NCBI GenBank assembly: GCA_030435675.1
Contig: CM059625.1
Span: 1,674,001 to 1,738,000 of the forward strand
DNA length: 64,000 nt
Direction: 5' to 3'
Origin: Steinernema hermaphroditum
Lineage: Eukaryota > Nematoda > Chromadorea > Rhabditida > Steinernematidae
Every line of letters starts with the position of its first letter. Within the stretch, counting starts at the first letter, position 1. Positions 12,413 through 22,905 of the stretch are shown here, piece after piece. The position numbers and the translations under genes are program-made. The notes beneath the pieces are model-generated. The model was given only the letters and a program-made list of their open reading frames with translations, had not been told where the DNA came from and ran no database searches.

Positions 12413-12672
12413 CCACCGACGACCACCCACAGCGAAGCGTCAAAAGTTGAAAGTTACCACCCGCAACCAGTTCACCCGACCACGAGGCGTTTTTTCGCTC
12501 TTCGGACGATTACTCGCGTGCCCGACGAACTTTTTGTGAGGAAGAAGGCGGCGACATCACAGCTGACAGTTGCCATATGACGCTGAGGTGTCTAACCTGT
12601 CTAATAGAAGACCAAAGGAGGAAACGACTGCCTATTATGGCAGAAAAAAAACTAAGTGGAAAGAAAAGCCGC
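12413..12672 (-). promoter_or_regulatory. Triple E-box block 1, copy A (upstream of plus bHLH gene)
   Basis: The reverse complement aligns with 22633-22905; the central ~165 bases differ by only a handful of positions by eye. It contains CAGCTG (12560-12565), CAGTTG (12567-12572) and CATATG (12574-12579), three E-boxes in 7-base steps. It lies about 0.9 kb upstream of the bHLH start at 13581, in the same orientation relative to transcription as copy B has to its own bHLH gene. bHLH proneural proteins bind CANNTG, so auto- or cross-regulation is a natural inference. A transposon origin is not excluded. Confidence 0.65.
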
Positions 12673-12940
12673 GTCGCTGGAGGTCTGCAAAGGTTTCCGG
12701 AGTGTGAAGTGCATGTTGAAAACGAAAAGAAGCGTTTGCATAAACTGCTATGTGTGAGTGTACTGTTGCGACCTTTCGTAACTACCGGCCTGATACTATC
12801 CTGATTGCAGGAACTGAAAAAAGATCCAGCAGTGTATGTATAGAGTCCCATCGTTTAGAACGGTGAGCCAAACTTTTCTTACTTTGTTGCAAAACACTCC
12901 TCATAAACAGTTTAAAAACCTCTGCTATAAATTGTAACCT

Positions 12941-13071
12941 AGCTTGCATAAATCCCGACTATTCAAATAGGACATCTCCGGAGGACGACGGCAAAGACCG
13001 GTTCAAGGCGTCGCCGTGATTTGAATCCGATTTGACATCTGCCCGTGTTCGACACACGCAATCCTTTCAAT
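12941..13071 (-). promoter_or_regulatory. Conserved block 2, copy A
   Basis: About 130 bases match the reverse complement of 22172-22300, including an E-box (CATCTG here, CAGATG in the other copy) within GCAGATGTCAAATCGGATT and a GACATCTC element. It sits between block 1 and the bHLH gene, as in the other copy. The 268 bases separating blocks 1 and 2 here show no similarity to the 332-base spacer of the other copy. Two conserved islands around an unconserved spacer suit cis-regulatory modules better than one uniform repeat. Confidence 0.6.
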
Positions 13072-13580
13072 TGTCTTCGCCACAAGTGCCCTCTGGCGAG
13101 ATGCGACCGTCAAAAATCCAATAATACCGTACTTGCAGCCGTCAAATTGAATTGCACGTGACGTCGCCGCCCGTTTTTGCGTTGTTGTATTTGTTCAAGG
13201 AGTCCTAAGTGGAAGGACAGCAATTAATTCCGCTGACTAATCGCATTATTCACTCCGGCAAATCCTCAAATCCACAAATTCCAATTTTTTGCATGCCCTT
13301 CCATCGCTCTTCACGATAATGCCATAAATGCCTTAATTATATGTGGGCCATCGGCACAGAAAATATCTGCCCTCCGCCGACGTTATTAGCGACCGAACCG
13401 TGCCCGCCCCCAATCGTCTCGCTTCCCGAACCACCCCGCGTGAACCTAAGTGGGCGGCGCCGCTTCGCGCACCCACCGACCGGCCACTCGGATTGTCTTT
13501 ATTCGGCGATTACTGTTCTGTCAGTCACTCGCCTCCTGTGCCCTCACTTGTCAACACCGCTTCTCCCAAGTCCTTCGAAG

Positions 13581-14003
13581 ATGCCCAGCTGCACCAAGTC
13601 CTCATCGGCTTCGTCGCCTTCACTCTCCAAGACCGCCTCCGGCAAGCTACCCCATCAGGTTCACCGTCGCAACGAACGGGAACGCAAACGTGTCCAGCAA
13701 ATCAACAACGGCTACGTTCGTCTTCGTGACTCCCTTAGCAAGTACCAGAACAACTCACGCAAGCTCAGCAAGGTGGAGACGCTGAAAGCGGCCATCGCCT
13801 ACATCGCGCAACTCCAGGACGTGCTCCAGACCGATATGTGCGTCAATGCCGTGCCACACCACTCCCACGACCAGTCCTTCTCCTCGTCTTCGGACTATTC
13901 GGTCTATTCGTCGCCTACCGACTTCGGCACCCAGTCGCCCTACTCGGCTTTCCCTTCTAATATGCAATTCGATTTCTATGCCTATCTACGCCATCATCAT
14001 TAA
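13581..14003 (+). CDS. Achaete-scute family bHLH transcription factor (gene A)
   Basis: Single exon, 140 residues. The bHLH domain spans about residues 28-83: basic region RRNERERKRV with the DNA-contacting Asn-Glu-Arg-Glu-Arg, helix 1 QQINNGYVRLRDSL, a short loop, and helix 2 KLSKVETLKAAIAYIAQLQ, which is diagnostic of the achaete-scute/ASCL group. The Ser/Thr-rich N-terminus and a Ser/Tyr/Phe-rich C-terminus flank it. The start MPSCTK was chosen as the first Met giving the usual short N-terminus; the frame is open further upstream, but that sequence looks like 5' UTR or promoter. An AATAAA lies at 14113-14118. C. elegans has several members (hlh-3, hlh-4, hlh-6, hlh-14, hlh-19), and I cannot assign orthology. 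Expected role: nuclear factor, dimerising with an E-protein (HLH-2 type) to specify neural or gland fate. It faces a paralogue at 20315-20791. Confidence 0.93.
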   Translation: MPSCTKSSSASSPSLSKTASGKLPHQVHRRNERERKRVQQINNGYVRLRDSLSKYQNNSRKLSKVETLKAAIAYIAQLQDVLQTDMCVNAVPHHSHDQSFSSSSDYSVYSSPTDFGTQSPYSAFPSNMQFDFYAYLRHHH

Positions 14004-20791: not shown

Positions 20792-22171
20792 GGTCGCCGA
20801 GGGCGTTGTAGAAACGGAACAGAAGGCTTATGGTCTGTAGTAACGGGATTAGAAGCGGGCGGCTAGACCGGGAGAGGAGCTGCTTGCGCGGAGAGGACGA
20901 AACTGACACACACGGTGGGTGTTCGTGTGAGCTCGCGAGGGAGAGCTTTGTGACAACAGAGCGGTAACTCCGCCCCGAAATGAGTGGAAGTACGGCCACT
21001 TTTCGCGCCTTTCAAGGAAAATGAGTGAAAGTCGTCAGCATGTTAATATCCGTTTTAATGTTCTAAGTAATGTAACCTACATCAAGACTGCAGCTGATGC
21101 ACCGAATGCATGTACAAAAACAAGGTTCAGAGTTTCAACTCTGAGTCCATAACATTGCATCTGTAAGGGGACAGTGTCTCAAAACCAAGCAAGGGTATCA
21201 TGGATCTCTGCCTGGAAATGACTTGAGCAACTGAAGCTAATAAAATATTTGTTTCCTCAAGAACCATCGCAGCAAAGTGACTTTTTCACGAAAGCGATTG
21301 AACACTGAAGACACCTCTTACCTTGAGCTTTTTTTTCTATTCAAATGGTCTTGTCCGCTTAAAGAAGTCCTACTTTTGAAAGATGGTTTTAGTAAAGTTC
21401 CGGATATCCCCAAATTTTGTTCTGGTGCATCGAATCCATGAACATGAACGTTTTCCAAATTGATGCCGCAGTTGTTGCGGAAAGCTCCGAAAACATCGTA
21501 AATTGTAGGGCAGGTATCATTCTGGGAAATAGTGTACGTAACTAGATAGTTTGACTCACATTTCTTACAGGAACCAAAGCATTTAAAATATTTGGTCTCA
21601 ACTCATTTCTGCAGAATGTGACTGTAAAAGATGTTCTATCAACAAGAAGCTGTTTCTGCTTTTTTTCTTCAACCTCACGTCTACCACCGTAAGCAAGAAA
21701 ATTTGAAATGTCGATCCCCAGTATTGTCTGTCCTTTGTCTACGATCCCCTCGGCGAGCGGTCGCGTGCCATCTTCGTATCCGTCGAAACTTCGCGCAATC
21801 AGTAGACTGCACCCGCCATCTGGATCGGATCTGTTATTTGTCTTTTCTTTTGTTCCCTGTAGCCGCCGATCTCCTCTGTACTTTTCTCCACAGAAGGACT
21901 AATTCGATTATAGCACTCGTGCCATCTTCCCCATAGCCACAACTTCGCGCAACAGCAAGGCACTAGTGCACCTGTCGGGTATCCTCAGATATAGCGCCAA
22001 ATCAGAGCATTTGAAGTGAGTGCTAGTCGCGACGATAACGAAAACGCAACAGTGCCGTAGAGGGGTGGCTATGAAATCTCACATCGAAATGGAGATCACA
22101 GGGCGCAGCAGCGGTCGAAACGAAAGCGAGATTGAGCGGGAAGATGCCTACTGTAAAATCAAAAGGGCGAC
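20792..22171. other. Proximal upstream region of bHLH gene B
   Basis: The 200 bases before the start are GC-rich and pyrimidine-rich on the coding strand, with several acceptor-like TTCAG/GTCAG sites that could accept a spliced leader. The rest is mixed-composition DNA with no supported gene. Confidence 0.4.
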
Positions 22172-22300
22172 TGAAAGGATTGCGTGTGTCGAACACGAGC
22201 AGATGTCAAATCGGATTCAAATCATGGTGACGCCTCGAACCGGTCTTTGCTGCGACCTCCAGAGATGTCCTATTCAAACAGTCGGGATTAATGCAAGCAA
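22172..22300 (+). promoter_or_regulatory. Conserved block 2, copy B
   Basis: About 130 bases match the reverse complement of 12941-13071. The shared landmarks are GGATTGCGTGTGTCGAACAC, the CAGATG E-box followed by TCAAATCGG, and GAGATGTCCTATT. It lies 1.4 kb upstream of bHLH gene B in the same relative orientation as copy A has to gene A. Confidence 0.6.
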
Positions 22301-22632
22301 GGCCATGATTCACTACCTTCACTAGCTTACAGTAGTATCTGAACAATATTCGATGGTATGGACATTGACTTCGACATGATTTGCATAGTAACGTACACTC
22401 CTTTTACTAAACCTTCTGCAGATCTCGTTCTGTCGTTCTTAGCCGGCCGGTAGTGCTCAACCGTTAGACAGCAATGGTAATGGCAATTCGCTACGGAATT
22501 CACTAACATCGTAGAAAACAGTGAGAAGACCAGCATTCCTTGCAGTTCCAACGGATTCACCCACCGTTTTGGCATAAACGTTAGCAGCCAAGTTCACAAC
22601 TTACGGGAAAGATTTTGTTTTTGTCAAACTCG

Positions 22633-22905
22633 GAAGACCTTCCACGAAGCGGTTTCCCTTTCACTCACTTTTTTCCTGCTTAATAGTCAGTCGTTTCCTT
22701 CTTTGGGCACCAATTAGGCAGTTCGGACACCTCAGCATCATATGGCAACTGTCAGCTGTGATGTCGCCGCCTTCTTCCTCACAAAAAGTTCGTCGGGCAC
22801 GCGAGTAATTGTCCGAAGAGCGAAAAAACGCCTCGCGGTCGGGTGAACTGGTTGCGGGTGGTAACTTTCAACTTTGACGCATCACTGTGGGTGGTCATCG
22901 TGTGT
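22633..22905 (+). promoter_or_regulatory. Triple E-box block 1, copy B
   Basis: CATATG (22739-22744), CAACTG (22746-22751) and CAGCTG (22753-22758) stand in 7-base steps. They are followed by about 150 bases almost identical to the inverse of 12413-12580. The 5' part (TTTGGGCACCAATTAGGCAG) is closer to copy C at 8280-8545 than to copy A, so the three copies do not form a simple pair plus outlier. It is 1.8 kb upstream of bHLH gene B. Confidence 0.65.

What the first reader, a model, noticed from the sequence alone, without database searches (positions are those of the whole stretch)
12413..22905. Convergent achaete-scute paralogues share upstream blocks more similar than their coding sequence
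Blocks 1 and 2 lie upstream of both intronless bHLH genes in the same order and orientation relative to transcription (12413-13071 for gene A, 22172-22905 for gene B). The central ~165 bases of block 1 differ at only a handful of positions by eye. The bHLH codons are much more diverged, and the spacers between blocks do not align. This suggests either strong cis-regulatory constraint, recent gene conversion of control DNA, or repeats independently placed. A shared, auto-regulating proneural control module is the attractive reading.
Basis: partly seen in the sequence, partly recalled or inferred. Interest (0 to 1): 0.75.

Follow-up and report, generated by a model that had tools for sequence, protein, structure and literature searches.

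The report
Duplicated enhancer at twin proneural genes
In a Steinernema roundworm, two neighbouring nerve-making (achaete-scute) genes carry nearly identical stretches of upstream non-coding DNA with a tight cluster of binding sites for their own type of protein, and a third, more diverged copy lies nearby, which looks like a shared control switch that has been kept alike while the genes themselves drifted apart.

Summary
[quoted passage not shown] The block-1 core differs at 3 of 149 bases (72 identical in a row), the main part of block 2 at 4 of 79. Aligned coding sequence is only 50% alike (165 of 333 nt); spacers, promoters and outer flanks do not align. Genome searches found these blocks only here, within about 16 kb, so they are not a dispersed repeat of similar age; copies as diverged as block 0 (71%) could be missed. 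Each block-1 copy holds three E-boxes at 7-bp phase, an arrangement found nowhere else in the window. Neither coding nor RNA-fold signals were seen. Best reading: a duplicated proneural cis-regulatory module, probably bound by AS-C/E-protein dimers in auto- and cross-regulation. A mosaic of A-B-like core and B-C-like right flank suggests that gene conversion may have re-homogenised A and B, but differential constraint fits too. Block DNA from other Steinernema, the decisive test, was not available.

The parts
13581..14003 (+). Gene A, intronless achaete-scute-family bHLH (140 aa)
   Evidence: Pfam HLH 56 bits (on the longer ORF from 13341); best PDB match ASCL1; S. glaseri (86% over 88% of the query) and S. 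carpocapsae L596_000931 (64% over 86%)
20315..20791 (-). Gene B, intronless achaete-scute-family bHLH (158 aa)
   Evidence: Pfam HLH 60 bits; best PDB match ASCL1; S. glaseri (69% over 81%) and S. carpocapsae L596_000934 (64% over 91%)
12407..12675 (+). Block 1 of A; core 12443-12591 differs from B at 3 of 149 bases
22636..22913 (-). Block 1 of B (similarity with C runs on to 22997)
8270..8624 (-). Third copy of block 1 (C): 76-77% to B and 73% to A in the genome searches, 70% over 368 columns to B in a looser alignment; lies between the 3' ends of two convergent genes read by eye
12938..13069 (+). Block 2 of A
22172..22302 (-). Block 2 of B
23536..23659 (+). Block 0 of B, shared with C only (71%); holds TGACCTTG, a nuclear-receptor-like half site (name recalled)
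7473..7597 (+). Block 0 of C
12560..12579 (+). E-box triplet CAGCTG-A-CAGTTG-C-CATATG in A block 1
22739..22758 (-). E-box triplet in B block 1 (same letters as A)
8375..8394 (-). E-box triplet CAGCTG-T-CAGATG-C-CATATG in C
12531..12553 (+). 23-mer TTTTTGTGAGGAAGAAGGCGGCG, exact at A, B and C only in the genome search

Best explanation
The blocks are copies of one proneural cis-regulatory module (enhancer) at a two-gene achaete-scute cluster in Steinernema. It was most likely copied together with an ancestral gene when A and B arose by inverted duplication. The module keeps an E-box triplet and flanking sites under strong constraint while coding sequence and spacers diverge. AS-C/E-protein dimers made with A and B bind the E-boxes and sustain or cross-activate both genes; copy C acts as a third, distal module or is a remnant of one. 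The extreme A-B identity of the core is either constraint alone or constraint plus occasional gene conversion between the inverted copies. Shown: the copies, their restriction to the locus at the search's sensitivity, unalignable surroundings, E-box conservation and gene identity. Inferred: enhancer function, the bound factors, auto-regulation and the mode of origin.
For: Blocks found only beside these genes. Spacers and promoters unalignable. Three E-boxes at 7-bp phase in 3 of 3 copies, the one E-box change in C staying within CANNTG; no other pair or triplet at that phase in the window; 13 triplets in the genome, 3 of them here. Both proteins match ASCL1 best and are each other's best-scoring bHLH stretch among the 30 of 39 genome matches compared (some of the 30 are partial exons). 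An E-protein-like bHLH is encoded elsewhere. No fold signal in the A copies, no Rfam match on the blocks, no coding pattern in the block-1 core. Mammalian Ascl1 prefers CAGCTG (PMC7917194, passages); C. elegans hlh-4 autoregulates and its promoter has E-boxes (PMC5908064, passages); fly ac, sc and ase each have an autoregulatory E-box element (SOPE) thought to have duplicated with its gene (PMC4832353, passages).
Against: No expression, chromatin or reporter data. No DNA of a second species. Constraint on 146 of 149 contiguous bases is more than E-box enhancers are known to need (own knowledge), and fly ac and sc SOPEs turn over fast. Copy C has no AS-C gene beside it. The E-box triplet as such is not enriched genome-wide: 13 sites against 21 for the reversed control. 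The genome search missed block 0's 71% partner, so equally diverged copies elsewhere cannot be excluded.
Confidence: 0.7

Rival explanations
1. Recent ectopic gene conversion (or re-copying) between the inverted A and B upstream regions made the core alike, without need of extreme constraint; function of the DNA would be secondary.
For: Mosaic in the three-way alignment: in 12443-12597 C alone differs at 35 sites, A alone at 5, B alone at 1; in 12598-12650 A alone at 9, B at 2, C at 10. Change-point permutation for A-only versus C-only sites p=0.0004, 64 sites; two-segment Fisher A versus C p=0.007, A-or-B versus C p=0.0027, borders chosen after looking. B and C also share the stretch beyond A's left end (score 14 against 7.7, p=0.002). 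Three other inverted bHLH pairs in this genome show high DNA identity: L013/L014 99.9% over 1819 bp, L028/L029 97.6% over 2058 bp, and L016/L018 96% over 487 bp beginning inside the bHLH domain.
Against: Two separate tracts around an unalignable spacer are needed, and tracts may end where constraint ends. B-only versus C-only sites alone are not significant (p=0.15). In the leftmost 25 columns the pattern is mixed (A alone 5, C alone 4, B alone 2). The all-transition count (7:0 against 22:14 for B-C, p=0.08) depends on ending the core at 12591; to 12597 it is 5:1 for block 1. Coding regions were not converted. The other inverted pairs may be plain recent duplicates.
Confidence: 0.35
2. Mobile or repeat DNA placed independently beside the two genes.
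For: Copies differ in spacing, and block 0 and block 1 are in swapped order in B and C.
Against: No copies outside the locus, at a sensitivity that misses 71% partners; same order and orientation relative to transcription at A and B.
Confidence: 0.04
3. A non-coding RNA gene or hidden exon, conserved for its transcript.
For: Long near-identical stretch; one of six frames of the core is open in A and B.
Against: Fold z-scores of the A copies -0.6 and -0.5 (block 1, both strands) and +1.6 (block 2, + strand only); no Rfam match on the blocks; in the open frame all 3 differences change a residue; copy C has a 2-nt gap in the core.
Confidence: 0.08
4. Inverted boundary or insulator elements bracketing the A-B domain.
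For: Blocks lie at the outer sides of a convergent pair, as inverted repeats.
Against: Copy C has B's orientation and lies outside the pair; E-box triplet conserved; no X-specific TADs are reported in S. hermaphroditum (PMC12629237, passages), though neither the species nor the X linkage of this contig was established here.
Confidence: 0.05

Closest known systems
Drosophila/Calliphora AS-C SOP enhancers (SOPE) of achaete, scute, asense
   Same: E-box-bearing autoregulatory elements of clustered AS-C paralogues, proposed to have duplicated with their genes (PMC4832353, passages)
   Different: Between fly species the ac and sc SOPEs keep only short sites and change architecture; here 149 bp and 79 bp are almost identical between paralogues, in a nematode, with a third copy that has no AS-C gene beside it
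C. elegans hlh-4 promoter autoregulation
   Same: Nematode AS-C gene with E-boxes in a promoter that depends on the gene itself (PMC5908064, passages)
   Different: CACCTG-type sites, one gene; no duplicated block mentioned in the passages seen
Duplicated conserved non-coding elements (dCNEs) of paralogous developmental genes
   Same: Non-coding similarity kept beside paralogous transcription-factor genes (titles in the reference list of PMC1852409; search listing)
   Different: dCNEs are defined by cross-species conservation (recalled), not testable here; the two copies are 10 kb apart and inverted, so conversion is possible
Concerted evolution of linked duplicates (for example Hsp70, Amy, annelid Dlx)
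   Same: Unexpected similarity between linked duplicates (PMC3199776, passages)
   Different: The passages and titles seen concern gene and coding sequence; here only non-coding blocks are alike

Membership tests
Achaete-scute (ASC) bHLH genes | bHLH domain closest to AS-C/ASCL proteins | tested here: met
   Best PDB match ASCL1 for both; Ascaris 'Achaete-scute 5' among hits of A
Duplicated conserved non-coding element | Paralogous non-coding blocks beside paralogous developmental genes, otherwise rare in the genome | tested here: met
   copies near 71% identity can be missed
Duplicated conserved non-coding element | Conserved at orthologous positions in related species | not testable with these tools
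   The search tool states that this genome has no relatives here
SOPE-like autoregulatory proneural enhancer | E-boxes of the kind bound by AS-C/E-protein dimers | tested here: met
   CAGCTG-CAGNTG-CATATG in 3 of 3 block-1 copies
SOPE-like autoregulatory proneural enhancer | Drives expression in neural precursors and depends on the proneural proteins | not testable with these tools
   needs reporters or mutants
Transposable element | Dispersed copies in the genome | tested here: not met
   block 1 at three places, block 2 at two, all in this locus; diverged copies could be missed
Structured non-coding RNA | Fold more stable than shuffles, or a known family match | tested here: not met
   (A copies folded only; block 2 on one strand)
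Gene-conversion tract | Local mosaic of relationships with definite borders | tested here: inconclusive
   mosaic present, but differential constraint gives the same pattern

The most novel reading that the evidence does not exclude
Concerted evolution of enhancers: two inverted copies of a proneural enhancer at linked achaete-scute paralogues are kept nearly identical by repeated gene conversion limited to the regulatory blocks, while the proteins diverge freely, and a third copy (C) that escaped conversion records the older state. Control DNA would then be the shared part and protein the specialised part of the duplicate pair.
Probability: 0.3. Interest if true: 0.72.

Novelty: new member of a known kind. 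Interest (0 to 1): 0.52.

Why it matters
In flies the enhancers shared by achaete-scute paralogues can hardly be aligned (PMC4832353, passages); here control DNA is far more alike than coding sequence. Because several Steinernema species are sequenced (PMC4578762, passages), the locus offers a clean test of whether duplicated enhancers stay alike by selection or by gene conversion, and a small, well-defined candidate for a proneural auto-regulatory element in a nematode outside Caenorhabditis. No paper on this locus stood in the rows listed by six library searches; several listings were capped and the library holds open-licence PMC papers only.

Tried and rejected
Coding exon: six frames of the 135-nt core read in A and B; the only open frame has all 3 differences non-synonymous; block 2 frames were printed and have stops or differ. 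Structured RNA or microRNA: fold z-scores near zero or positive, no Rfam match on the blocks. Dispersed repeat: five block-sized DNA searches, the 23-mer (three exact sites plus one on C2 with 3 mismatches) and the E-box pattern (three sites, reversed control one per strand) find the locus only, but for that one weak site. A third AS-C gene or remnant next to C: tblastn of ten AS-C proteins gave nothing better than E=1.4 between 6.8 and 8.8 kb. Block 2 near C and block 0 near A: no alignment above shuffles. Genes between A and B: stop-to-stop frames listed and looked at, not searched further. Core patterns in viral contigs: 0 matches for two patterns. A claim that the E-box triplet is rare everywhere was dropped: 13 genome sites against 21 for the reversed control. 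One search found no files; one search translated minus-strand bHLH loci on the wrong strand; one search replaces both. Ungapped windows made the left edges look sharper than they are; one search corrects this.
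Full report
Where it is. The window is 1674001-1738000 of an 18.39-Mb contig in a 90.6-Mb, 60-contig genome. The best named protein relatives are Steinernema: gene A is 86% identical to an S. glaseri protein and 64% to S. carpocapsae L596_000931; gene B is 69% and 64% identical to an S. glaseri protein and to L596_000934. So the organism is a Steinernema or very near it; the species is not established.

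The genes. A (13581-14003, +) and B (20315-20791, -) are intronless and convergent. Both match Pfam HLH and, among solved structures, ASCL1 best. Of 39 HLH matches in the genome, the 30 held as loci were compared, A and B among them; some are partial exons. A and B are each other's best-scoring match (score 141; 31 of 58 aligned residues the same); the next best are 96 for B (L010) and 121 for A (L008). A protein tree of 19 rows puts the three Steinernema A proteins together (98/98) and the three B proteins together (100/98), with much of the rest unresolved, so the duplication is older than the split of these species. Over 111 aligned codons 41 residues and 165 of 333 nucleotides agree, and 20 of the 41 shared residues keep the third base.

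The blocks. [quoted passage not shown] The core of block 1 (12443-12591) differs at 3 of 149 bases with a 72-base exact run, and 12991-13069 of block 2 at 4 of 79; these seven differences are transitions. Across one-base gaps, 12421-12442 differs at 2 of 22 and 12938-12987 at 7 of 50. The right end of block 2 is abrupt (19 of 20 to 5 of 20); block 1 fades over some 20 bases on the left and in steps on the right (16, 15, 15, 8, 10, 4 of 20). The 262/333-base spacer, the promoter stretches and the DNA above block 1 do not align beyond mononucleotide shuffles (p 0.14, 0.77, 0.89).

A third block-1 copy, C, lies at 8270-8624 (76-77% to B, 73% to A), between the 3' ends of two convergent genes that I read by eye (one ends near 6785 on +, one near 8805 on -). 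B and C also share block 0 (23536-23659 and 7473-7597, 71%, score 50 against a shuffle mean of 9.2), in swapped order relative to block 1. No block 0 was found near A and no block 2 near C. So B has 0, 1 and 2; A has 1 and 2; C has 0 and 1.

Genome-wide. DNA searches with B's whole upstream block, C, block 2 and extended block 1 returned only these places. The 23-mer TTTTTGTGAGGAAGAAGGCGGCG has three exact sites, A, B and C, and one other site with 3 mismatches on C2; the E-box pattern with up to 3 mismatches has the same three sites only. Limit: block 0 of B did not recover its 71% partner in C, so copies that diverged as far would be missed.

What the DNA holds. Each block-1 copy carries three E-boxes one base apart: CAGCTG, CAGTTG (CAGATG in C), CATATG. 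The window has no other pair or triplet at this phase. Genome-wide the bare triplet is not special: 13 sites against 21 for the reversed control, 3 of the 13 being here. CAGCTG is the E-box that mammalian Ascl1 prefers (PMC7917194, passages). The genome encodes an E-protein-like bHLH (best match E2-alpha), the expected partner. The A copies have no fold signal, the blocks no Rfam match and the block-1 core no coding pattern.

Constraint or conversion. In 12443-12597 C alone differs at 35 sites, A alone at 5 and B alone at 1; in 12598-12650 A alone differs at 9, B at 2 and C at 10. A scan for one change point in A-only versus C-only sites gives p=0.0004 from 10,000 permutations that treat sites as independent; two-segment Fisher tests give 0.007 (A versus C), 0.15 (B versus C) and 0.0027 (A or B versus C), with borders chosen after looking. 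B and C share further sequence beyond A's left end (p=0.002), but in the leftmost shared 25 columns the pattern is mixed (A alone 5, C 4, B 2). A conversion tract would leave such a mosaic, and inverted neighbours are suitable partners: three other inverted bHLH pairs here show 96-99.9% DNA identity, one of them (L016/L018) starting inside the domain, though these may be plain recent duplicates. Equally, A may have lost the right arm and C the left arm of a modular enhancer. Without a second species the two cannot be told apart; I put some conversion at about one in three.

Mechanism. Most likely an enhancer bound by AS-C/E-protein dimers, giving each gene auto- and cross-activation, as reported for fly SOPEs (PMC4832353, passages) and C. 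elegans hlh-4 (PMC5908064, passages). C. elegans proneural bHLH proteins are described as obligate partners of HLH-2 (PMC10108603, passages). Anatomy, locus restriction and E-box conservation are shown; binding, activity and auto-regulation are inferred. Conserved non-coding sequence within the genus is reported for Steinernema in general (PMC4578762, passages), so the comparison needed is feasible with public genomes.

Verdict. A real, unusual and testable case of what looks like a duplicated developmental control module. It belongs to a known kind; the three-copy layout and the near-identity of control DNA beside diverged proteins make it of moderate interest, higher if concerted evolution of enhancers is shown.

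Noticed in passing
8805-10019 (-): Proline-rich protein with internal repeats: self-matches of 63-69% at offsets of about 205, 414 and 618 bases, that is about four units of some 68 residues; no Pfam match.
   Followed up: partly
11666-11739 (+) and 51492-51565 (-): Two tRNA-Ala(AGC) genes in inverted orientation, 95% identical over 82 bases; one sits just above the A blocks.
   Followed up: no
19786-19876: Tandem 26-base duplication next to a tRNA-like stretch (tmRNA match of 18.7 bits, gathering score 47) in the gap between A and B.
   Followed up: no
L013/L014 (C3:8272340-, 8295155+), L028/L029 (C1:15336443+, 15384709-), L016/L018 (C2:10496849+, 10489740-): Three other bHLH pairs lie as inverted neighbours with 99.9% (1819 bp), 97.6% (2058 bp) and 96% (487 bp, beginning inside the bHLH domain whose first half differs) DNA identity. 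Inverted bHLH duplicates, and perhaps conversion between them, recur in this genome.
   Followed up: partly
C4:12043678-12043697: Another E-box triplet at 7-bp phase with both CAGCTG and CATATG (CAGTTG, CATATG, CAGCTG) outside the locus; neighbouring gene not examined.
   Followed up: no
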